DNA of 64,000 nucleotides from positions 1,178,001-1,242,000 of the forward strand of contig QYRS01000010.1 of the NCBI GenBank assembly GCA_006503535.1, given 5' to 3'. Numbering within the stretch: the first letter of the stretch is position 1; each line of letters begins with the position of its first letter. Shown here piece after piece: positions 47,232 through 62,424 of the stretch. Below the pieces are notes generated by a model that ran no database searches, was not told the DNA's origin, and saw only the letters and a list, made by a program, of their open reading frames with translations. Position numbers and translations under genes: made by a program. The DNA is from Arthrinium phaeospermum (lineage: Eukaryota > Ascomycota > Sordariomycetes > Amphisphaeriales > Apiosporaceae).

Positions 47232-50200
47232 ATGGTGTCTTCCACCTACAAGGACAAGCCGAGCGGGGCGCTCTTTGCCTTTAGCGCCAAATGGGTCGCC
47301 TACGCGCATACGATCATCGGATACAGTCAGTGAAGCCTTGCTCTTGTTATTGGGGTTGTATGTTTCGTCTTGGGGTCTAGTCATACTGAAAATGCACCAG
47401 CCGCTTTCGTAAGCGCACTTGTTGTCGGCATATCGCTGCATTATCACAACATTGTCAAGAACGAGTTCTACGGTTACCCGCAAGAATGGTTTCCTTCCGT
47501 TTCGGCCACGATCGGCGACCGATACCCCGAGCGAGCCTTCTTCCAACTCTTCATAGCTTTAACCTCCGGTAAGTAGGCTGTTGTGCACTCGGTGGAGCAG
47601 GACAAGAAGGCTGGTATCATATACACTCTGTCAAGCAACTGGTCCAATCCAGGTGGTCAAGATCTAATATCAATGGTTGCGCAGGCCCTCGGTTCGCTCT
47701 CATTGGACTCTGGTATTTGTTGACAGCAAAGTCCGGAACGGTGCTTCCTAAGTTTGTTGCCGGTGTGGGATTGTTCCGGACCTTTACTTGCGGAGGCTGG
47801 ACCTACGTTACCTCGACAGATGATCATGATTGGCACGACATCTTCATGATATCCTACCTCGTCGCAACCCTGCCTTGGACTCTCGGCTGCATTGCGTTAA
47901 GTCCAGCGAATCCCACAGCGATCAAGTATCGGAAGCGTATTGCTGGCTCTTTTTTCGGCACCCTGGTGCCTTTGGTGTACTTCTTCATCCAGCACAAGGT
48001 CCATCGAGTTGCCGGAGGTAAGTCGCAGCATGCACGATGGCCTAGCTGGGCTGCTAACATGGTATGCATAGCTTATACTACGTATGCCTTCTTCGAGTGG
48101 GCTTTGATCCTGTTTGATGTCGCCTTTGACGCCGTCACCGTCCTTGACTTTGCCACCTTTGAGATTGTCGTCAGAGACGTCGGCGGACTTAGCCAGGGGT
48201 ACGTGCAACGGCTCCCCCAGTAACTGCTTCTAGTGTTTTGCAACTGCACACTCGCTTGAGCTGGTCATCCCGCCATGGGGAAGTCTGTTAAATTGGTCTG
48301 TACAATATCTGCCCATCCAGCTGCCGGTGCCACCTTCAGCCGTCACTTCTCGATAATGGATGAGACGAAATACTTACAGCGTTGCCGCTGGTGCTTCATC
48401 GGTTTTGGCCCCTTTAGCATCCGGCGCCGATGTTATCGTCGGCCGCAAAGACTTCTTCCAGGCGAGATGACTTCCTTGGCGGATGTGAACACGAGTCGGA
48501 AAGTGTGAATGTTGGTTGACTTTTGCTCGAGCGATTGGAATACCCAGCCTGAGCAGCCTACTTCATGCTTGGCTTGGAGCAGTACTGGGGCCTTGGCGAG
48601 TCGGGAGATGGTGAACCAGCTCGAGCGAGTGTGGCAGTGCTTCGTTAGGATCCACGCTTCGCAATTGTATGCTAATGTATGGCTAGAGTGAATAAGTCTA
48701 GTATGTCTGGCACCGCGCTCGAAAGGCAGAAGACGAAGGCTACTGGCGGGATCTTCGACGTCAATTTCACATGGAGAGAGACCTTGGATACGATCGCCGA
48801 AGTGTATCATGGCTATGTTTTCTGGTCCATTCTCACAGGCTTGGGACTTGTGATATGGTACTTCCCACTATGGTTCATGGGTATATCGGGCTATGAGGCT
48901 CTGGTCATGTCCACGATCTCGCCTCTGCTCTTAGGTGTCAAGCCTGTGAGATCGTTGGTCACCAATCACCTGAGAATATGCCATTTCCTCTCACTTGCCG
49001 GCTTACTTGCTTACCTGGTCGAGGACCCAATCTATCGGCTTTTCACCGTCGGCTTTGGCGTATCGATGTCCTGCCTCTCATGGGCGGCCCAACTGTACTC
49101 GGAAAATGCCCACGAAACCCGTCTCGAGTCGAAGGTGCTTGCCTGGTTGGTAGGGTTGGTTCTTTCTTCCACAGCCAAGTTTACCTGGTGGACAAACAAT
49201 CCCATTTGGCCTATCATGCATGCGGAGAACGGGGGCCATAACGGGATTGGGATTATCTTGGCAGTATTGGCTGTGTGGCGGTTCACTCGAAGAGCACCAT
49301 TGAATACCGGGGCCGCAAAGAACGAGAATGTCGGGGGCTCGGCCTTCCTGTCAGCTCTGGGTATAGCAGGCCTTTTCTTTGGCCTTCACTCACTCCTGTC
49401 CGACTCGAGCACCATGATCTCCTGGGTCTGGGAAGGCTACCCTGTGCGTGGTCCTCTCGCCGCACCCCATGGCTGGTTTACGGTTGCAGCCATGACTCTG
49501 GGGCTTTTGATAGGCCTTGCGCACCCGAGCCTGGTTAGCACATGGTCTGCCTACGGCATCGGATGCGTTGGGGCAGCCGTTCTCACATCGTATGGCAACT
49601 GGTATGGATTCTTGGGTGGGCTTGTACTTGCGTTCTACCTGATGGCCATCGCAGGCCCTTTTCTCAAAAACGCTGCCAAGAAGAGCCCCGCGATGAACTT
49701 TGGTCTTGGATTCTTTCTCTACAACATCATGGTTTTATTCCATGTCTGGGTGGTCGCTTATGCCTTCGTTCCAGGTGGTCCTTATGTCCGAGAACACACC
49801 GACTGGGTCATGATTACGATGATGCTGCTGATTGGCGCTGGCGTATTCAACCTGGCCTTTACCAGCCCCCATGAACCTCGGACACCGCAGCGATCTGGCT
49901 CATCACAACATAGGAAATATCATACATCGGCATTGGCGTTGATCAACATGTTCTTTCTCGCAATGGCGTACCTCCGCTTTCCTACGAACGACTATGCACC
50001 ATATCATGCCGAGTCCCAGATCATCACCGCTGGCATCTGGACCATCCATTTCTCCCTTGACAACGACATGTGGTCTTCCGAGAAACGCATCCGCAATTTG
50101 CTCAAGGAGCTTGAAGTCGACGTTGTTGGGCTTCTAGAGTCAGATCTTCAGCGCATCATCATGGGTAACCGTGATACAACACAATTCCTCGCCCACGACC

Positions 50201-50868
50201 TGGGCATGTATGTGGACTATGGCCCAGGTCCTAACAAGCACACCTGGGGCGCAGCCCTGCTCAGCAAGTTCCCCATTGTCAATTCGACACACCATCTACT
50301 GCCTTCTCCGGTTGGCGAGCTTGCCCCTGTGATCCATGCGACTCTGGATTGCTATGGCGAGCTGGTTGACGTATTTGTATTTCATTCGGGTCAGGACGAA
50401 GACGTCGAGGATCGCCGACTCCAGACTGCGTACGCCTCCAAGTTGATGGGCAGTTCTCCGCGGCCCAGCATCCTCTTATCCTATCTTGTCACCCAGCCGC
50501 AACAGGGTAACTACAACACCTACGTTTCGGATCTCTCGGGGATGCACGACGTTGAGCCGAGTGATTGGGATCGCTGGTGCGAGTACATCTTGTACAAGAA
50601 GTTGCAGCGGGTAGCGTATGCCCGCGTAAGTCGATCAACCATCACAGATACCGAGTTGCAAGTCGCAAAGTTTGTTGTCCCCCGGAGAGCAGAGGAAAAG
50701 GCCCTTGTATCCGTTCTGGAGAAGGATGAGCGGGCGAGGGATTGGAAGGTACAAGAAGATGAAGTGCCTGTAGGATGGAGATTCCCGGCTCTGTTCCGTG
50801 GGAAAGGCGTGAGGGGCCATCGCTACCATGTCTTTGACGAGCCTTATTACTACCTGCCAACGAATTAG
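47232..50868 (+). CDS. cwh43: CWH43-type GPI lipid-remodelling protein (junction uncertain)
   Basis: CWH43 exchanges diacylglycerol for ceramide in GPI anchors at the ER/Golgi. Exons 47232-47325, 47401-47568, 47685-48017, 48072-48198 and 48380-~48468 encode the Frag1/PGAP2-like membrane half (for example [37 protein letters not shown]). The large last exon, from about 48687 or 48702 to 50868, carries about ten more helices and a C-terminal endonuclease/exonuclease/phosphatase-like domain ([40 protein letters not shown]). The two halves are one protein in other fungi. Here the exon at 48380 reads [20 protein letters not shown] then hits TGA at 48468-48470, and no GT donor in the right phase joins it to the last exon. 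It may be a frameshift, a nonstandard splice, or a misread. Confidence 0.78.
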
Positions 50869-51189: not shown

Positions 51190-53906
51190 TTACCACAGTT
51201 CACAAGAGGTCTCCTGCTTCTTGCATTGGAATGCGTCACGGAATGCCTTCGTGTTTGCTGCGGTTCCGAGGATGCGAGGAAAAGGCGGGGAGTGTGCATT
51301 CGCCAGGATGCTGTCCGAAAGCAGGATCTCGCGCGGTATCTTCTGGCACCAAGTCTGCCCGAACGCGAGGAAGAACAACTGGTCGTTGGTGAAATCTTCC
51401 AAGCCCGGCAGCCGCGGGGAGGGGCTCGCGTCCTCGAGCTTCCGCCAGGCCTCGTACGCGAGGCCCAGGCCGCCCGAGTCGGCGACGTTCTCGGCCAGCG
51501 TCACGGTGCCGTTGACGTAGACGGCGTCGCCGTCGTCGTCGCGGAGCGGGGTCCCGTCGTCCTGCAGCACGGGCAGGCGGGAGAACTCGTCGACGAAGCA
51601 CTGGGCGCGCTCCTCGAAGGCGGCCGTGCTGGCGTTGTCCCACCAGCGGCGGTACCGAGCGTCGGGGTCCCAGTCCGGGCCCGAGTTGGTGTCGAGGCCG
51701 TGCGTCAGCTCGTGGGCCTGGATGTAGCCGGCGCTGCCGTACGACAGGTAGCGCGGCGCGCCCGGCCAGGCCAGTGGGGGCTGGGACATGGCCGCGGGGA
51801 CGACGATCTGGTTCGACTCCTTGACGTACTGCGCGTTGCTGATCCAGCTATGGGCCTGGTACTCGGGCCAGCGCTCCCGGTCGGCGGGGCGCTGCTTCAG
51901 GCTTTGCCACACGCGGGCCGAGGACCACTGGCGCAGGGACGCGACGTTGGCGAAGTGGGAGGTGGTGATGTTGACGCCGGCGTAGAACTGCTTCAGGGAG
52001 GATGGGTCCATGACGTTGGGGTCCTGCACCCGCGCAAAGAAGAAGCAAACCACGTTAGCAGCTTGAAAAGTAGCACGGCTTTTGGAGTGGAAGATGAAAT
52101 TCTCACCTTATCTGGGTACCCGACTTCCAGGATCATGTTCTTGACCTTTTCCTGGACCAGAGCCTTGGTCTCGTCCTGGAGCCAGTCGAGCCTGCCGATA
52201 CGCTCAACAAAGGCATCGCGTATGTGATTGGTCTGCTCCGTGGACGATTTATGGATCTCTTCGTTGTAGGTCGCATCCAGGAAGAACTTGCTCATGATCC
52301 ACGAGAGGCTGCTGTCGAGGTAGCTAAAGCAGGCCGGGAACCGGTCTTCTTTGGGGCTCTACAAATACGAGGGGAATATTCAGCCTGGGGACGTCAAACA
52401 TCGATGTTTGTTGATGTACTTACGATGGCCTGGCTAGTGTAGGGCAAGTAGTTCGCGTAAGCCAACGCGAGCATTACGATTTGGAGGGTCGATCGAGGGG
52501 TCTTGCTGATCATCGTGGACAGATCGCTAAAGCTCTTGGGGAGCTGGAACTGCATCCGGTCCAGCTCGCAGCCTTCTGGAGCCAAGGCCTTGATGACCTT
52601 GTCCAATCCGAGGGCGGGCGCTGCCTCAGCTGCGGCCTTGATTGTCGTCGTGTAGACTAGAGAGTCCTAGGAATGAGATAACTGCGTCAGAGCCCAGAGC
52701 CAGTACTCATAGTAAGAGGGACCTCCACAGATGTTTCATTGTCATTGTTTACGTACCGGATCGGCTGTGTATTCAACCAGTGCTGTGTCCGAGAAATTGG
52801 CGAGTTGGGCCGAGAACGCTACCAACTGCTCGGCCAGCTGTGGCGCTGCCTCTCGCGCAGCTTTGGACGGCAAAGTGGCGTTTAGTATCTCTGCAATAGC
52901 GGCGGGTTCAATAGCGGCGAGTGCGTCTATGGTTACTTGAGCGGGCAGGGTCTTCAGTGTGACATTGTTCGCGACATAGAGGCCAAAGTAGGGGATATAG
53001 ACATCCTATCATGTTGGGTCAGTAATAGGCACAGGGGTAAAGAGACATGCTTGGGGGGGGGGGGGGGGGGGGGTGCTGACGGGGTTCTGGTTGTCCAGAC
53101 CGGTTGAGAACTCCCCGAAGACGGGGATCCCGATGGAAGACAGGTAAGCAATCGTTTCAGCGAAGCTGTCATAGTCCTGCTCGGTGATGGTGCTGTTGGA
53201 GAGGTAGTCTGCATCGCCGACAGGGAAGAGTTGAGTGATTTTGGCAGTGATGGCAGAAAGACCGGCGAGCCCTGAGGTATTGCTATCGACTCTCGGTGTC
53301 AGCATCTACTGTTGGGTTGAATACAAATGTCTCGAGAGGGAATAGTGGAAATTTCTGGAATAAGCAGTTATTCCATCCCTCGTGAGACACTGGGCTAACG
53401 TGGAATAACCACTAGAACAGGAAGGAATAAACACCGAAAGTCGCTTACTTGTCTGGCTTGATGTCCATACAAGCCTCGTAGCTGAGGACGAGCTTGTCGA
53501 AATTGTCCTGGTCGTCCGGCGTAGACTTGGCAGGCTGGTGGTCAGTTGAGTGTCCTACAATGGTTCTGGTGGATATAAAGGCCCTCCCTTACCGCATTGG
53601 CTTGAGGGTATGGACCCTCAACAATGGACCGCAGTGTCTCGCGATTCGTATGGGCAATCTCAACCAGTGTTTCCATATACTTTTGATCTGGGAACCTGGT
53701 TGGAAACCCGCCGCAAGAGTCTAGATAATTATGTCGTTAGCCCGGCCGTGAGCCTGTAGAACGAGATGGAAACACATACACTGGGCAAAGTCGTTACACG
53801 GATCCATCGACTTGTAGTCGGGGTGTAGGTTATCCAGAACGTGGGCGGCGGCTTTGACGCACGTCGGCGTCAAGCACACGCTGGGACTCGAGTTTGACTG
53901 ACCCAT
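51190..53906 (-). CDS. M13-family zinc metallopeptidase (neprilysin-like)
   Basis: Eight exons: 53906-53780, 53720-53593, 53534-53449, 53291-53081, 53005-52757, 52666-52424, 52358-52107 and 52023-51190, 709 residues, all phases closing. M13 peptidases cut short peptides on the amino side of hydrophobic residues. The zinc site is intact: HELTH at 536-540 and the third ligand in ENVADSGG (Glu610). The substrate motif NAxY is NAQY, PAAMSQPP precedes it as usual, and the family C-terminus CxxW is present (CELW). The N-terminal domain begins DPCNDFAQYSCGGF across the first intron. No signal peptide or membrane anchor is seen before it, unlike most members, so an upstream exon may be missing. Its position beside a peptide-precursor cluster makes a processing role worth testing. 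Confidence 0.87.
53053..53073. repeat. G21 homopolymer in M13 intron 4
   Basis: Twenty-one consecutive G on the plus strand (C21 in the transcript), starting seven bases after the donor GTCAGC of a 75-nt intron. An unusually long G/C homopolymer. Confidence 0.95.
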
Positions 53907-55559: not shown

Positions 55560-57139
55560 ATGGAACTTAAAGGGGGGCTTGGACTAGCGACCTTCGGGAT
55601 TGCCGCTGCGATCGCCTACTTCGTACTCACGAGCATCCGAGGATACCTTCGACTTCGCCATATCCCCGGCCCCTTTTGGGCGCGGTGGAGCAACCTCTGG
55701 CTCAGCCATCAGATGTTCCGCGGCGAATACGTCGAGGTCATGGACCGGCTGCACAGACAGCACGGCCCCATCGTCTGCCTCGCCCCGGATTTCGTCTCCA
55801 TCAGCGACCCCGTCGAGATCGCGCGGACCAAGCGGAAATGGAACCGAGGGCCGGCCTACGACGGGATGCGGTTGCGGCCCGGCCAAGAGTCCCTCTTCGT
55901 CGAGCAGGACCCCAAGACGCACGACCGGCTCCGCGCGAAGTTCACGCCGGCGTTCATCGGCAGGGATGTCGTGGAGGGCGTCGAGGGCATTATCGATGAC
56001 CACATGGTCAGGCTCTTGGAGCTCATCGAACACAAGTACATATCCACCCCGGACAACTACCGCCCGCTGGATCTGACCAAAATCCTCACCTATTTCACGA
56101 CGGACATCACTTCTTGCATGGCCCTCGGACAGGATTTCGAGTGCCTAAAGAGAGAAGACGATTTCCACGGGTACATTCACTCGGTAGAGTCCTACCTGCA
56201 TGTACTGTCCTCACTGATCGTGCTACCGGTATTCCAAAAGTTTATGAAAACGCCGTGGCTGAAATATGTCGACCTAATGCGACCTCCCCTACGGCCAATC
56301 TTGGAGATAGCCGAGGCTTCTGTCGCCAAGCGGTTCGGCGAGAAGAGGGTCGAGCAGAAGGATATGCTGGGCGCACTCGTCGCGCACGGGGTATCCCAGG
56401 GCGCCCTCGAATACGAAACAGTCTACGTCCTGGCCGCTGGCTCGGACACGAGCTCGACAGCCATGAAAGCGACCATACTCCATACTATATCGACGCCCTC
56501 GGTGTACCGCAGGCTGCAGCGGGAGATTGACGAGTCCCTTGCGTCGGGGAAAGTCACAACGTCGCCCATCAGCTCCTCGCAGGCAAGAGAGCTACCTTAC
56601 CTGCAGGCCGTGATCAGAGAAGGCCTCCGGGTCTTCCCGCCCGCGGCGATATTACCGGTGGCGTCGGATCAGGAAGAGGTGGTTTGCGGCAAGCGGGTTC
56701 CGGCGGGTGTCAACGTCGAGCCGTCCCTCAAGACCGCCGCCAGGGACAAGAGCATCTACGGGGACGACGCCGATACCTTCCGACCCGAGCGATGGCTGGA
56801 GGCGGATGCAGATAAGCTGAAAGGGATGGAGGAGACCTCCAGGGTCATCTGGGGAGGACCCGGCCGCTGGGAGTGCCTGGGCAAGAATATAGCCCGCATC
56901 GAGCTTGACAAGGTGTTTTTTGAAGTAAGTCCTGCTCTGGTGGCATTTCACTGCTTGTCTAAGATTCTGACTAACCATGATCTGCATCTAAGCTGTTCCG
57001 GCGATTCGAAATGGTTCTAGCCGATCCTACTAGTCCATGGAAAACCCTTAGCTGTCGTCTCTGGGTCACGACGGATTTGTATGTGAAAGTGGAGCGCAGG
57101 GACGCAGGATGTGACTCGAATGCAGGGCATCCAGCCTAG
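55560..57139 (+). CDS. Cytochrome P450 monooxygenase
   Basis: Two exons, 55560-56924 and 56993-57139, 503 residues; donor GTAAGT, branch CTAAC, acceptor TAAG. An ER-anchored haem enzyme: membrane helix at 8-26, then the Pro hinge HIPGPFW at 34-40. The I-helix oxygen motif AGSDTS is at 293-298, ExxR at 354-357 (EGLR) and FRPERW at 407-412. The haem loop reads WGGPGRWECLG with Cys439 as ligand; Trp431 replaces the usual Phe. The overall look is of the pisatin-demethylase/trichothecene-hydroxylase-like class common in fungal secondary metabolism. It lies 376 bp from the precursor peptide gene, tail to tail, and near a UstYa gene; in dikaritin pathways a P450 (UstC in ustiloxin) works with UstYa proteins. 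Substrate is an inference. Confidence 0.93.
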
Positions 57140-57515
57140 CCGAGATGCGCGACCTTACAGGAAAAACGCTGTCAGCTGTTTAGTGATGCATGTTGGTTGT
57201 CACTTCTTATACCTGCATGATCTGGCGAGTCTCAACAAGGAGACTGAAAGCCTACCCCGCTTGCCATTGCAACGAGCCCCTCTGTTCAGGGAAGGACGAT
57301 GACCTGTCTGAAGGAGTAAACGAGAGCGGCATCAGAATGTCGACAACCGATTGGTCACATGATTTGCTCGGTCAATCTCCACCTAAGTGCGTAGTCAGGG
57401 GTCAGGGATCAGGGGTAGATCATTTACTTGAATCTCATTGGTACCGGATTTCCGGATTCCTAATTAACTGCATATGATCGACTGGCATGCTGTGACCATG
57501 ACCAACATCAGCCCC
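57140..57515. other. Convergent intergenic P450/precursor
   Basis: 376 bp holding two 3' ends. No gene seen. Confidence 0.6.
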
Positions 57516-57851
57516 TTACTTCACATTCGGCGTCAGACTGTCATGTCCGTACGCTGCCTCCCCTCGTTTCTCGGCCATGTTGAGGCTGTTTACGGCGTAT
57601 GGCAGAGTTGCCGTCTTCGGGTCCCCGTAAATCCCTTCCACCTCGCGCTTCTCCACCACGTTCAAACTGTTGACGTTGTACGGCAGCGTGGCCGTCTCGG
57701 GGTTGCCGTAGATGCCTTCTGCCGGCTTCGCCTTTTCCTCGTTAGCAGCTTGAATCACAGAATAAGCACCATGAATTGGACTTACAACTGGTGCGCACGT
57801 CGCAAGCGAGGCCAGGAGGCCGGTAAGAACAGTAATGGTCTGGGAACGCAT
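57516..57851 (-). CDS. Kex2-processed repeat precursor peptide (dikaritin/UstA-like)
   Basis: An open frame of 111 codons. The signal peptide MRSQTITVLTGLLASLATCA is followed by a pro-region, two copies of a 25-residue block on a 27-residue period (DNA 57719-57645 and 57638-57564), and a shorter third piece (GEAAYGHDSLTPNVK). Each block starts EGIYG, contains TATLPY and VNSLN, and ends in EKR, a Lys-Arg site for the Golgi protease Kex2. This is the plan of fungal UstA-type RiPP precursors and Kex2-processed repeat proteins. Two Tyr in each unit are candidates for cyclisation. The copies share 20 of 25 residues, 12 of them in different codons. A possible 54-nt in-frame intron lies at 57785-57732. 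It diverges from the UstYa gene. Confidence 0.82.
   Translation of the reverse strand: MRSQTITVLTGLLASLATCAPVVSPIHGAYSVIQAANEEKAKPAEGIYGNPETATLPYNVNSLNVVEKREVEGIYGDPKTATLPYAVNSLNMAEKRGEAAYGHDSLTPNVK
57564..57719 (-). repeat. Two 75-nt coding repeats, 81-nt period
   Basis: Copies at 57719-57645 and 57638-57564 encode the Kex2-bounded units of the precursor peptide. Conserved at protein level but diverged at silent sites. Confidence 0.9.
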
Positions 57852-58510
57852 ATTGTGTTGCGTTTTGGATGTGAGAAACTGATGATACGATGGCTCTTGC
57901 TCTTTGAAAAACTCAACAAGAAGAACGTGGGTGAGATGTCTCGACGTACTTTATACTTAGTCTTACTTGTGAGCTCATAGAATCATCCCGATACGGATGG
58001 ATCGGAGAGAGCTTACAATGCAGCACTTTTCAGGGGTATTTCAAGTGCAGTCACATCGCATGGGGCATTCTCATCACATCACCCCCTGACAGGGAGGCTA
58101 ATCCTGAAGGATCATGTAACGGGCCAATCGGATTCAAATCAGATGCTATATTTGCTTACTAAACCATCTTGGCGTACCTCATCACATCATCTTTCCCTCT
58201 CCCCACCTCAACGGCATTCTTGATAGGTAGGTTGTTCACAGTCCAGACGAGACTTTGATCTGCATTATGGCCTCCGAGATAGCCTTTGGAAATGGACCAC
58301 CTTCCAACACAGGTATAGGTAAATGTACGCCCTTTTCCACTAGATTGTCTTGGATTCGTAGACTGGTTGGTGTTTACTCAACTTTCTTCAACCACATACC
58401 TTGTACTTGAAGCTCGGCCCAAGTCACCCTAGCAAAAACACAAGAGTCAAAAAGAACAGACTGACTCTAAAAATATAAACACTTGAAGCTCCAAAGAACT
58501 TCCAACCACA
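57852..58510. promoter_or_regulatory. Shared divergent promoter, precursor/UstYa
   Basis: 659 bp separate the start codons of the precursor (minus) and UstYa (plus) genes, the usual layout for co-regulated cluster genes. A TATA-like element for the precursor is listed separately. No palindromic operator was identified by eye. Confidence 0.5.
57949..57955 (-). promoter_or_regulatory. TATA-like box of the precursor gene
   Basis: TATAAAG on the minus strand, 98 nt upstream of the precursor ATG at 57851. Confidence 0.45.
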
Positions 58511-59571
58511 ATGTCGACAGAAATCAACCAGTCCCAGTACGAACCGTTGGACCCATCGGAGCTTGACCTCGACGAAGACGCATGCTTTCTCGGCGATAAG
58601 CAGCATGTCTCGCGCCACCCTTACAAATACCCAGCAAGATCATATCTTTTTGCCACTGTAATCAACATATCGTTCTTCGTTGTTTCGTGTGTACTGTGTG
58701 GCACATGGTACTACAATGTGCATATGAGGAAGAATGGCGCACTGAGACAGGCATCCTCTTATAGTAAGTTAGGTACCTAGTTTGCAACTGTACAAGCCCT
58801 ATCAGTGACTCTCCCATACTGAACATACTTGGAGGCCCGATACTGGACATGCTGGATCTTGATCTGAGCGTCCAGACCATGAACGGGACCCTGTTTCAGC
58901 CAAAAGACGGCGGGTCCATTGCCCGTCAGATGCCCAATCCAGAGGCGGATGCCGTCTGGTCTGAGTATGAGCTCACCCGCTATTTCCCCGTCACTGCTGC
59001 ACAAATCCGTGCCATGGGAAAGGATCCGGCCACCGTAGCGAAGCTCGAGGACGAGGATTGGGGCATGGGGGACGACAGCTACGTGACGATCCTCGACGTG
59101 TACCATCAGCTCCACTGCCTGAACACGCTGAGACAGTTGGCCTACCCCGAGTATTATTCCAACACGACTCATCCACACCCCAAGACTACGCGTTCAGAGA
59201 AGAGGAGGGGCAAGAAGCAGAAAAGCGAGATCCTCGCCATCCACGTCAACCACTGCGTCGACATGCTGATGCAAGCGATCCAGTGCAGCGGCAACGTCAA
59301 CCTGATTACCATGCACTGGGTCGAGGAGCAGCCGTATCCGTTCCCGGACATGTCGGTGAACCGACAGTGCATCGACTTCGACAAGCTGAGCCAATGGAGG
59401 AAGGACAACACGTTGGATATGGAAAGGTACGTCGAGACGATGCGGAAGAAGGAGGGACGTCACTATAACCAGCTGAAGGCCCCTGATGCGTACTACGAGT
59501 ACTACATGCCGGACGCGGTCAACCCAAATCACCTGAATGGTGCCAATCCGGGAGAGGACTTCAATCTATAA
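58511..59571 (+). CDS. UstYa-family oxidase (DUF3328)
   Basis: Two exons, 58511-58763 and 58835-59571, 329 residues; donor GTAAGT, phase 1. UstYa proteins are membrane-bound oxidases that build the macrocycle of fungal dikaritin RiPPs. A cytosolic N-terminus (1-42) precedes one membrane helix at about 45-69. Both family motifs HxxHC are intact: H175-H178-C179 (YHQLHC) and H221-H224-C225 (HVNHC). The sequence before them is also typical (DLDLSVQTMNGTLF, DDSYVTILDVYHQLHC). A basic Lys/Arg-rich insertion of about 15 residues lies between the motifs around 203-216. Paired divergently with the precursor peptide gene, which strongly suggests that the peptide is its substrate. The acceptor before GGCCCG is GAG-type, so the junction has some uncertainty. 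Confidence 0.9.
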
Positions 59572-60732
59572 CCTTTAGAAGCATTCAGCCAAACGAAGTC
59601 CCACAAGATCTTGCCCGGGTGTTTACCAAGAGCGCACCTCTAGATGAAGAATATTGAAAGATGTCCCTCATCCATTAACGTAGGACTCATAGGCCATAAA
59701 TAAACACATGCTTTTGGTCCTGGAGATGGAACGCCAGAGGACAGGGGCATTGCAGCAAACTGAAGGCGCCAACTCCTGCCTCTACACAAGTGTAATTACA
59801 AGGATCATAAGCCTCCAATCGGCATTGTGCAGCCAACAGATGTGTGGAACTGGAATTTCTGCAGTGTTTTCTCTTTTTGGCGTCAGCCTGAAAAAAAAAA
59901 AAAAAAAAAAAAAACACTAGATATGCAGATGATCGAGCTGCATTGGGGGCCAGACTAGACCCTTTCGGGTGATAATACACATGCCGTGTCCTGGCTGGTG
60001 AGAGCCTGATAGAAGATGAGCCGTCCCGCCTGGTTCATGAGGCCGATCAGTGCGACCTTGCAATCACCCGATCTCCATGCGGGATGGCTATGCCGTTGAG
60101 GAGCGTTGCAAGGAGACATTGGTAAACCGCACGTACGTGGTTTTCGGTGAAGGCAACAGTGATACAATGTGCAAGACCGGAATTTAGGCCTGGAGCCTGT
60201 TGGCCTGTGAGCCTAGGGGCGCCGAGGCTTTATATCACTAAGAGCCGTCTCTCGAATCTGCCTTACCTGAATGTCATGCTCCCACCCACCGGAGCTCAGT
60301 CAACCTTGGTGCTACCCCCATACCCGACACATGCTTGCTTCATTTGGAGAAGTGTAATGTGTGGAATTGGCATTGTGTCCTGGGCATCCATGTATATAGA
60401 AGCCGAGTCTCACCATGGCGCACTCGAGAAGCAGGCTAGGCGTGCCCGACTTTTTTCCATTCGGGCAGTATGCAGCGACTCCACAGAAAAGGAAACCAAG
60501 CCAAGGAGAAGTATCCAGGGAAAGAGGGAGGAAGAAAGTCATGGCGGTAAGTGGGCTGCATCCTTTCGAGCAGCAACGTCACAGACACTGATACCAAAGA
60601 ATATCCAGAGACTGGATCCCCAGAGCCTCACGTCCATTCAGACGAAGAAGTAATGGCCTGAAATCAATAGAGGAGCCGTCGACGAAACAAACCGTGAACG
60701 AAAACGCTGCTGTTAAGCAGCCCCCATCAACG
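59572..60732. other. Intergenic with a poly(A) tract
   Basis: About 1.2 kb. No gene supported. The frame of the next gene is open upstream of its first ATG back to a TGA near 60588, so a short upstream exon is possible; an ATGGCG followed by GTAAGT at about 60541 is one candidate. Confidence 0.5.
59891..59914. repeat. A24 homopolymer
   Basis: Twenty-four consecutive A on the plus strand, 320 bp downstream of the UstYa stop. No target-site duplication was recognised around it. Confidence 0.95.
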
Positions 60733-62424
60733 ATGATCGGATCCGACGAAGCCATCAGCGATTCCTCGGCTCAAAGCTCAGGTGCAAGGGGTACCCCGGT
60801 ACCCAGCGAGTCCACGCAGTCTTCAACAACGTCCATATCGAATGGCAAAAAGCCACAGAATACTGAACATGAAGAAGGACCGAGCAGACCCGTAACTCCC
60901 AGACCGGCTTCTACATGGCCAATGGCGTCCAAGGAAAGCAGCGATAAACAGACGCTCGATGTTCGGCTCCAGAAATATCAGATCCCCATCAACACATCGC
61001 TGTCTAGGGCGTACCATGAAGCTAGGTTTACCGAGTGTTGGGAGCAGAAGCTGCTGCCCGAGATTGTCAAGATCTTGAACAACAATATCCAAGGCGCCTA
61101 CAGTATAAACGTTCGCAAAGGCGATGAGCCTGATCAGCGGGTCATAGACCTCATGACCAAGGACAACTGTGCCAAGATGTACAGTGAGCTCCTTGAGGCT
61201 GCAAAGAAGGAGCATCTACCGGAGGAGTTCCGGTCCAAGACCCATTTCGACTTCCGCAGTGGCAAACGAGTTTACTGTGCCGACGATTCCAGCAGCGAGA
61301 CATCATTGCAAGCACGGGGCTCTGCTCATTTCAGACCCCGAAACCCACATCGCTTTGACGAGCCTGTTATGGGTGACTCTGTTGGTACGACCTCGACCGA
61401 CAACACTGCAACACTGGGACCTCTGATCGAAGTGAACAAGAGGTTATACCGTCTCGTCAACTGGCACTTGTTTGACGACGAAGTAGGTAACAAGAATCAT
61501 AACTGGGACAAAAGAGAGCCGCCTGCAAAGCTCGAGCTTGTGCATCCCTCACCATCCGACTTGGCACAGTACTCTGCCGGGGACTTGCTCGTGCGAATAG
61601 GTAAAGTGGTAGCTTACTCGGGACCCATGTACAAGACAACTCGTGCCATCGCATCTTCGGGTCCACTAGGCAACCCCGCCAAAGAAACTTGGCAAACCAC
61701 GACGGACTGGGCGTTATGCGAAACCCATGAGGATGGACATCCAAACAAGGTACGATACATCATCGATGAGGAGGAGACGGGAGAGACGTCCTGTTTCTTC
61801 CAGGACATCATTGAGACCACCTCGACCATGACAAAGGGAGACAGAGTGTATGCAACTGGGCGGTCCAGCGGGTACACCGAGGGAGAGATCTGCATGTTGA
61901 GCTACCTGAAGAACGACGATGGGACAGTTCAAAGGGATTGGGCAGTCTCCTCGTATGCCCGCGAGGATGTCGCTTGGGAAGAAGGCATGGGGATCTTCGG
62001 AGATTCTGGCGCGGGCATCATGGACCGCTCCAACAGGCTCATCGGCCAGCTTTGGGGAAGAAACCACTACGACGACGAGCCCAAGGTACCTGCCATCACC
62101 TACTTCACCCGCATCACGGACATCTTTGATGACATCCAGGAGCGTTGGCCTGGTAGTATTCGGTGCTCACGGCCTAAGCTACCTGGCGAAGTACTTCAGA
62201 CGGACGGAACGGACGGTGCTGCTCTCGCCATAACTGAGATCCTGAACAGTGTGTCATCGACAGAAGGAAGTACGGAATCGTTGTCGGACGAGAAGCACCT
62301 GGACGTGATAACAGAGGTTCGCCGATCAAGTGCCAGGTCGGCTTTGATGGTCACGGGCAACGGCAACAAGGCGAAGCACTTTTGGGTTCAGCATGCAGCT
62401 ACGTGGCCCAAACTCCAGGCTTGA
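60733..62424 (+). CDS. Chymotrypsin-fold-like hypothetical protein (GDSGAG)
   Basis: Open frame of 563 residues from the first ATG at 60733; the frame extends further upstream without ATG, so the N-terminus may be longer through an upstream exon. Residues 1-70 are Ser/Thr-rich and disordered. The middle is helical. The C-terminal half has the pattern of trypsin-like domains: strand DLLVRIGKVVAYSG, GRSSGYTEGEICML, then GIFGDSGAGIMDRSNRLIG (codons 61990-62046), where GDSGAG matches the active-site Ser motif of chymotrypsin-fold enzymes. I cannot place the His and Asp partners with confidence, so activity is uncertain. No signal peptide is visible. The family resembles uncharacterised fungal proteins of this fold. 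A role in the neighbouring peptide cluster is only a possibility. Confidence 0.65.
   Translation: MIGSDEAISDSSAQSSGARGTPVPSESTQSSTTSISNGKKPQNTEHEEGPSRPVTPRPASTWPMASKESSDKQTLDVRLQKYQIPINTSLSRAYHEARFTECWEQKLLPEIVKILNNNIQGAYSINVRKGDEPDQRVIDLMTKDNCAKMYSELLEAAKKEHLPEEFRSKTHFDFRSGKRVYCADDSSSETSLQARGSAHFRPRNPHRFDEPVMGDSVGTTSTDNTATLGPLIEVNKRLYRLVNWHLFDDEVGNKNHNWDKREPPAKLELVHPSPSDLAQYSAGDLLVRIGKVVAYSGPMYKTTRAIASSGPLGNPAKETWQTTTDWALCETHEDGHPNKVRYIIDEEETGETSCFFQDIIETTSTMTKGDRVYATGRSSGYTEGEICMLSYLKNDDGTVQRDWAVSSYAREDVAWEEGMGIFGDSGAGIMDRSNRLIGQLWGRNHYDDEPKVPAITYFTRITDIFDDIQERWPGSIRCSRPKLPGEVLQTDGTDGAALAITEILNSVSSTEGSTESLSDEKHLDVITEVRRSSARSALMVTGNGNKAKHFWVQHAATWPKLQA

What the first reader, a model, noticed from the sequence alone, without database searches (positions are those of the whole stretch)
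55560..59571. Compact candidate RiPP (dikaritin-type) gene cluster
Seen: within 4 kb lie a P450 with all core motifs, a secreted precursor with Lys-Arg-bounded repeats, and a UstYa-family protein with two HxxHC motifs; precursor and UstYa genes are divergent with a shared 659-bp promoter. Known: UstA-type precursor, UstYa proteins and often a P450 are the core genes of ustiloxin, phomopsin and asperipin pathways. Inferred: this locus makes a cyclic peptide from a Tyr-containing core not matching the products I know.
Basis: partly seen in the sequence, partly recalled or inferred. Interest (0 to 1): 0.92.

Follow-up and report, generated by a model that had tools for sequence, protein, structure and literature searches.

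The report
Small fungal cyclic-peptide (RiPP) gene cluster
A fungus carries, side by side, a gene for a small secreted protein built from repeated peptide units and genes for two oxidising enzymes that may turn those units into a ring-shaped peptide; the kind of cluster is well known, but I found no description of this particular peptide.

Summary
A P450 gene (55560-57139), a secreted Kex2-repeat precursor (57851-57516, minus) and a UstYa/DUF3328 gene (58511-59571) lie within 4 kb. Precursor and UstYa share a 659-bp divergent promoter. The precursor's two 25-residue repeats differ at 74% of synonymous but 12% of nonsynonymous sites, so the repeated peptide has been kept by selection. Corrections: (1) the precursor probably has a 54- or 60-nt in-frame intron right after the signal peptide; (2) it has two full repeats and two Lys-Arg sites, below the published survey's three-repeat rule; (3) an ustiloxin/phomopsin-type dikaritin is not supported: no tyrosinase or S41 match lies on this contig. 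The layout is closer to asperipin-2a (one UstYa). I infer the core around Leu-Pro-Tyr-Asn/Ala-Val-Asn, a Tyr-x-Val where ustiloxins have Tyr-x-Ile. The only M13 metallopeptidase match in the genome is the next gene upstream, a candidate trimming enzyme. The P450 belongs by proximity only. No homologue search was possible. It is a new member of a widespread known kind.

The parts
57516..57851 (-). RiPP precursor gene (Kex2-processed repeat protein): signal peptide, two 25-residue repeats, C-terminal tail; 111 aa unspliced, 93 or 91 aa if the predicted intron is removed
   Evidence: one match in the genome, itself
57726..57785 (-). probable in-frame intron (60 nt to 57726, or 54 nt to 57732) directly after the signal peptide
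   Evidence: GTAAGT...CTAAC...AAG, GC3 6/20 against 66/91 elsewhere in the ORF; no transcript evidence
57645..57719 (-). repeat 1, EGIYGNPETATLPYNVNSLNVVEKR, ending in Kex2 site KR
57564..57638 (-). repeat 2, EGIYGDPKTATLPYAVNSLNMAEKR, ending in Kex2 site KR; 20 of 25 residues and 55 of 75 bases identical to repeat 1
57519..57563 (-). C-terminal tail GEAAYGHDSLTPNVK; resembles the start of a third repeat (xYG) but not beyond chance
   Evidence: shuffle p=0.49
57852..58510 (.). 659-bp divergent promoter region between the precursor and UstYa genes; TATAAA at 58474 (+) and at 57950 (as TTTATA on +)
58511..59571 (+). UstYa/DUF3328 gene, exons 58511-58763 and 58835-59571, 329 aa; one hydrophobic segment near aa 46-64
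   Evidence: PF11807 E=1.3e-51; gene model; motifs
59104..59118 (+). first HxxHC motif (HQLHC)
59242..59256 (+). second HxxHC motif (HVNHC)
55560..57139 (+). cytochrome P450 gene, exons 55560-56924 and 56993-57139, 503 aa, N-terminal hydrophobic segment; tail to tail with the precursor (376-bp gap)
   Evidence: PF00067 E=1.6e-45; gene model. Link to the pathway by proximity only
56850..56882 (+). P450 heme-Cys loop WGGPGRWECLG
51190..53906 (-). M13 (neprilysin-type) metallopeptidase gene with HELTH and ENVAD motifs; 5' end not resolved; only PF01431 match found in the genome; possible trimming peptidase
   Evidence: link to the pathway is inferred

Best explanation
This is a compact fungal RiPP locus. 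The precursor enters the secretory pathway and its signal peptide is cut off. Kex2 cuts after each Lys-Arg, freeing two units of about 25-30 residues that carry two tyrosines each (IYG and LPYxV). The UstYa protein, a lumenal binuclear-copper oxidase by family precedent, cross-links a tyrosine in each unit to a nearby side chain. The likeliest link is from the Tyr of Leu-Pro-Tyr-Asn/Ala-Val-Asn to the beta carbon of the Val two residues on, the geometry of Tyr-x-Ile in ustiloxins and phomopsins. Peptidases then trim the flanks, possibly the neighbouring M13 enzyme, and the P450 may hydroxylate the product. Shown: the three genes, the conserved repeat, the Kex2-type sites and the intact HxxHC motifs. 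Inferred: Kex2 cleavage, cyclisation, which residues are joined, trimming, the P450's role, and secretion of the product.
For: PF11807 match and both HxxHC motifs, residues whose change to Ala abolished activity in the relative CctR (PMC12435403 passages). Repeat kept at protein level while synonymous sites are near saturation. Signal-like hydrophobic N-terminus and KR sites. Adjacent divergent arrangement: DUF3328 genes peak at the position next to Kex2-repeat genes in a survey of 1461 strains, and 65.6% of repeated sequences in such precursors contain Tyr against 38.2% in others (PMC7329392 section 7). Chance adjacency is about 0.0035. A second UstYa place of the same genome also has a Kex2-repeat ORF about 3 kb away. 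One UstYa and no tyrosinase is enough for asperipin-2a (PMC6514808 passages).
Against: Only two full repeats, against 16, 8 and 4 in UstA, PhomA and GigA. No expression or mass data. No promoter words shared between the P450 and the divergent promoter beyond chance. No tyrosinase or S41 match on the contig, and no regulator among the 16 ORF pieces given to Pfam (not every ORF was given). In the repeat scan the reversed control scored as high as the real sequence at other places. P450 catalytic domains normally face the cytosol while UstYa and Kex2 act in the lumen (recalled), so the P450 link is the weakest.
Confidence: 0.78

Rival explanations
1. The precursor yields linear signalling peptides (a pheromone-like Kex2-repeat protein) and the UstYa gene beside it modifies something else.
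For: Most Kex2-repeat proteins (6120 of 7878) have no DUF3328 gene nearby (PMC7329392); the whole 25-residue repeat is conserved, not only a short Tyr core.
Against: Head-to-head adjacency to UstYa; pheromone precursors are almost never beside DUF3328 genes (3 of 216 putative fungal pheromones, 0 of 227 alpha-factor types; PMC7329392); each repeat has two Tyr.
Confidence: 0.13
2. Only the precursor and UstYa form the functional unit; the P450 and the M13 peptidase are chance neighbours with other roles.
For: The four-gene asperipin-2a cluster holds no P450 (PMC6514808 passages); the genome search with this P450 gave 93 matching stretches, its own included, so a P450 neighbour is not rare; no shared promoter words; M13 gave a single match and could be a housekeeping gene.
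Against: The P450 lies 376 bp from the precursor; a P450 takes part in the ustiloxin B pathway (PMC12048977 passages).
Confidence: 0.4
3. A larger cluster that also takes in the MFS transporter and O-methyltransferase lying about 5-8 kb beyond UstYa, outside the window.
For: MFS PF07690 E=1.8e-40 and Methyltransf_2 E=1.4e-20 in the adjacent 10 kb; transporters and methyltransferases occur in known clusters.
Against: Two unrelated-looking genes intervene (a protein with a sub-threshold trypsin-like match and a fructosamine kinase).
Confidence: 0.2
4. A decayed cluster: the repeats are the remnant of a longer precursor and no product is made.
For: Two full repeats plus an odd tail.
Against: All three reading frames are open with plausible splice sites and the repeat shows strong protein-level constraint.
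Confidence: 0.06

Closest known systems
Asperipin-2a cluster (aprA, aprY, aprR, aprT; Aspergillus flavus)
   Same: Repeat precursor with several Tyr per unit and a single UstYa-type oxidase; no tyrosinase among its four genes and no peptidase (PMC6514808 and PMC12048977 passages)
   Different: Core here is not FYYTGY; no reductase seen among the ORFs given to Pfam; a P450 is present; nearest transporter found lies about 5 kb beyond UstYa
Ustiloxin B and phomopsin clusters (dikaritins in the narrow sense)
   Same: Signal peptide, KR-bounded repeats, DUF3328 oxidase, a P450 in the ustiloxin B pathway; Tyr-x-Val here against Tyr-x-Ile there
   Different: No tyrosinase or S41 match on the contig, one DUF3328 gene instead of two or five, two repeats instead of 16 or 8, no EDYxI motif
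Epichloecyclins (gigA)
   Same: Few-repeat precursor (four), Tyr/Ile-type cross-link, KR sites (PMC6514808 and PMC9233826 passages)
   Different: Two repeats here; the repeat sequences were not compared (GigA was not fetched)
KEP/DUF3328 loci surveyed by Umemura 2020 (PMC7329392)
   Same: The same class: Kex2-repeat gene directly beside a DUF3328 gene
   Different: The survey asked for at least three repeats, so by my count this precursor falls below its cut; the survey's table was not seen

Membership tests
UstYa/DUF3328 oxidase (PF11807) | Family profile and two HxxHC motifs | tested here: met
   E=1.3e-51, HQLHC and HVNHC
UstYa/DUF3328 oxidase (PF11807) | N-terminal membrane segment | tested here: met
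   hydrophobic 19-mer, mean 2.23, from aa 46; simple scale only
UstYa/DUF3328 oxidase (PF11807) | Copper-binding fold and activity | not testable with these tools
   single-sequence AlphaFold model useless (pLDDT 35.7); no PDB relative up to E=1
Kex2-processed repeat protein (KEP), survey definition | Signal peptide | tested here: met
   hydrophobic N-terminus by a simple scale only, no SignalP
Kex2-processed repeat protein (KEP), survey definition | At least three repeats of 8 or more residues between Kex2 sites | tested here: not met
   two full repeats; the tail's likeness to a third is at chance (p=0.49); criterion from PMC7329392 section 13
Dikaritin, broad sense (class-defining DUF3328 plus ribosomal precursor) | Double-HxxHC DUF3328 gene clustered with a secreted multi-core precursor | tested here: met
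   definition from PMC12048977 passages
Dikaritin, narrow sense (Ding: ustiloxin/phomopsin type) | Tyrosinase in the cluster | tested here: not met
   0 of 56 PF00264 matches found in the genome lie on contig C10 (exon-wise search, counts are lower bounds)
Dikaritin, narrow sense (Ding: ustiloxin/phomopsin type) | S41 peptidase in the cluster | tested here: not met
   0 of 4 PF03572 matches found lie on contig C10 (same limits)
Dikaritin, narrow sense (Ding: ustiloxin/phomopsin type) | EDYxI core | tested here: not met
   repeats read TLPYNVN and TLPYAVN; motif from PMC6339444 passages
Asperipin-type | One UstYa, no tyrosinase | tested here: met
   next UstYa match on the contig is about 74 kb away (coordinates)
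Asperipin-type | Reductase (aprR) and transporter (aprT) genes | tested here: inconclusive
   an MFS gene about 5 kb beyond UstYa; no reductase among the 16 ORF pieces given to Pfam, but not every ORF was given
Any RiPP | Modified peptide made from the precursor | not testable with these tools
   needs mass spectrometry

The most novel reading that the evidence does not exclude
A two-repeat precursor next to one UstYa oxidase defines a minimal subclass of fungal RiPPs that repeat-count surveys miss. Each Kex2 unit would be cross-linked at Tyr-x-Val (and perhaps also at the Ile-Tyr-Gly tyrosine) and trimmed by a cluster-encoded M13 neprilysin-type peptidase in place of the S41 peptidases of dikaritins.
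Probability: 0.2. Interest if true: 0.6.

Novelty: new member of a known kind. Interest (0 to 1): 0.38.

Why it matters
It adds a well-defined, very small candidate cluster (two to four genes) with a testable core prediction and a Tyr-x-Val variant of the known Tyr-x-Ile cross-link. It also suggests that precursors with only two repeats can lie beside UstYa genes, so surveys that require three or more repeats would under-count fungal RiPPs. If the neighbouring M13 peptidase takes part, it would show how some of these peptides are trimmed, a step a 2019 review still called unknown for ustiloxin (PMC6514808 passage).

Tried and rejected
Single-sequence AlphaFold of the UstYa part encoded by exon 2: pLDDT 35.7, not used for fold searches. 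PDB sequence search with UstYa: no match up to E=1; with the P450: 232 sequences, of which the 60 shown are various P450s, best E=2.2e-18. Shared promoter words between the P450 upstream region and the divergent promoter: 14 shared 8-mers against 17.8 expected, 1 shared 10-mer against 1.2, no signal. A degenerate first repeat upstream (GAYSVIQAANEEK): not beyond chance (p=0.81) and more likely intron. Third repeat in the tail: not beyond chance (p=0.49). Repeat scan of the window and 20 further stretches of the genome (the window's right flank; 9 of the other 15 UstYa places in full, one in half, 5 not fetched): 5 hits at 2 places, the window precursor and overlapping frames of one ORF on contig C8. 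Reversed sequence gave 5 hits at 4 places with scores up to 16.1, two of them the mirror of the C8 repeat, so the scan by itself proves nothing. The looser scan gave 19 hits against 18 reversed. Literature search with six repeat fragments: one irrelevant paper. rDNA search to place the fungus: one partial match above the gathering score and two below, not pursued.
Full report
What is there. The window lies on contig C10 (1178001-1242000) of a 48.4-Mb genome in 19 contigs. I take it to be a fungus from its gene content and introns. Between a gene with PGAP2IP domains (48676-50868; Cwh43-type, recalled name) and a fructosamine-kinase gene (from 63409) I could model, in order: an M13 metallopeptidase (minus strand), a P450 (plus), a small repeat precursor (minus), a UstYa gene (plus) and a protein with only a sub-threshold trypsin-like match (Trypsin_2 E=0.03, 15.5 bits against a cut-off of 27.6). 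The P450 is 503 aa with PF00067 at E=1.6e-45. The UstYa protein is 329 aa with PF11807 at E=1.3e-51, one hydrophobic segment near residue 46 and HQLHC/HVNHC at 175 and 221.

The precursor is real. Its two 25-residue repeats share 20 of 25 residues but only 55 of 75 bases; 17 of 25 codons differ and 12 of those differences are silent. By Nei-Gojobori counting, 13 of 17.5 synonymous sites differ against 7 of 57.5 nonsynonymous sites. The duplication is therefore old and the peptide has been kept. The simple test treats sites as independent. The precursor search found only itself in the genome, and no Pfam or NCBIfam family. The repeat scan alone would not have shown this: reversed sequence gave equally high scores at other places.

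A corrected gene model. Directly after the signal peptide the ORF holds GTAAGT...CTAAC...AAG (57785-57732, or to 57726). This stretch has GC3 6/20 against 66/91 in the rest of the ORF (p=0.0006). The strict pattern was found in none of 9785 nt that I took as coding (seven stretches of the window), and 4 times on both strands of the whole window: in the P450's own intron, which also ends in AAG, in this precursor, and at 48018 and 27656, which I take to be introns of neighbouring genes but did not model. Removing 54 or 60 nt keeps the frame and puts the first repeat within a few residues of the signal peptide; the CAG at the 67-nt position would break the frame. No transcript evidence was available.

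What it most likely does. The DUF3328 protein CctR is copper- and oxygen-dependent and lost activity when its HxxHC residues were changed (PMC12435403, abstract and passages seen). DUF3328 proteins are described as indispensable for cyclising ustiloxin, phomopsin and asperipin cores, and their genes peak at the position next to Kex2-repeat genes (PMC7329392; abstract, passages and sections 7 and 13 seen). Here Kex2 would free EVEGIYGDPKTATLPYAVNSLNMAE and its sister unit. The Tyr-Ala/Asn-Val-Asn stretch has the Tyr-x-(beta-branched residue) spacing of YAIG, YVIG and YVIP (PMC7329392, PMC4740483 passages), so I place the ether link there; the second tyrosine (IYG) could carry another, as in asperipin-2a. 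This is inference by analogy: both tyrosines are invariant between the two repeats, and two repeats cannot tell core from spacer.

Which known kind. In the broad sense (a double-HxxHC DUF3328 gene with a secreted repeated precursor) the locus fits the dikaritins. In the narrow sense it does not: none of the 56 tyrosinase-domain matches and none of the 4 S41 matches found in the genome lie on this contig (the search is exon by exon and its counts are lower bounds), there is no EDYxI motif, and there is one UstYa gene. The next UstYa match on the contig is about 74 kb away. One oxidase without tyrosinase is the asperipin-2a pattern (PMC6514808 passages). The precursor has two repeats and would fail the three-repeat rule of the survey of 1461 strains.

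Surroundings. The M13 gene carries HELTH and ENVAD and gave the only PF01431 match found in the genome. That makes it an attractive trimming peptidase for 25-residue units, but a gene with a single match may also stand beside a cluster by chance, and its 5' end is not resolved. Beyond the window's right edge, at C10:1242534-1245912, lie an MFS transporter and an O-methyltransferase; two other genes separate them from UstYa. The k-mer test gave no sign of a common promoter element. The P450 belongs by proximity only. Elsewhere in the genome a second UstYa place, on C8, has a repetitive Kex2-type ORF about 3 kb away.

Limits. No homologue database, no fungal relatives and no transcripts could be consulted. 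Papers were seen as abstracts, passages or single sections, none whole. Absence of this core in print rests on one search with six fragments, which does not cover supplementary tables, where such survey lists usually sit, nor subscription papers such as the 2016 survey of Aspergillus genomes cited in PMC6514808.

Verdict. A genuine, compact, probably working RiPP locus of a widespread kind, with a peptide for which I found no description: good genome mining, not a surprise. Interest 0.38.

Noticed in passing
L016:3328-4014 (C8:1172228-1172914): A strongly repetitive Kex2-type ORF with units like REPHHKGVKGGKKNNKR and no Tyr in the repeat, about 3 kb from another UstYa match (C8:1168727-1169107). 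It resembles the di-histidine type of DUF3328-linked precursors mentioned in PMC7329392.
   Followed up: partly
window 51190-53906: The only M13 (neprilysin-type) catalytic-domain match found in the genome stands directly beside the RiPP genes.
   Followed up: partly
L010:534-3912 (C10:1242534-1245912): MFS transporter and O-methyltransferase genes just outside the window, possible further cluster members.
   Followed up: partly
window 60592-62424: Large ORF with a GDSGAG stretch and a sub-threshold Trypsin_2 match; function unclear.
   Followed up: no
own genome, 16 places: The 24 UstYa (PF11807) matches fall into 16 places, two of which are wide enough to hold more than one gene (C1:5149100-5151316, C12:247888-249692): a large repertoire.
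   Followed up: partly
L010:5522-6928: ORF for a probably secreted 468-aa protein with EKR and DKR sites, a Cys/Trp-rich stretch and GYGQNP-type repeats.
   Followed up: no
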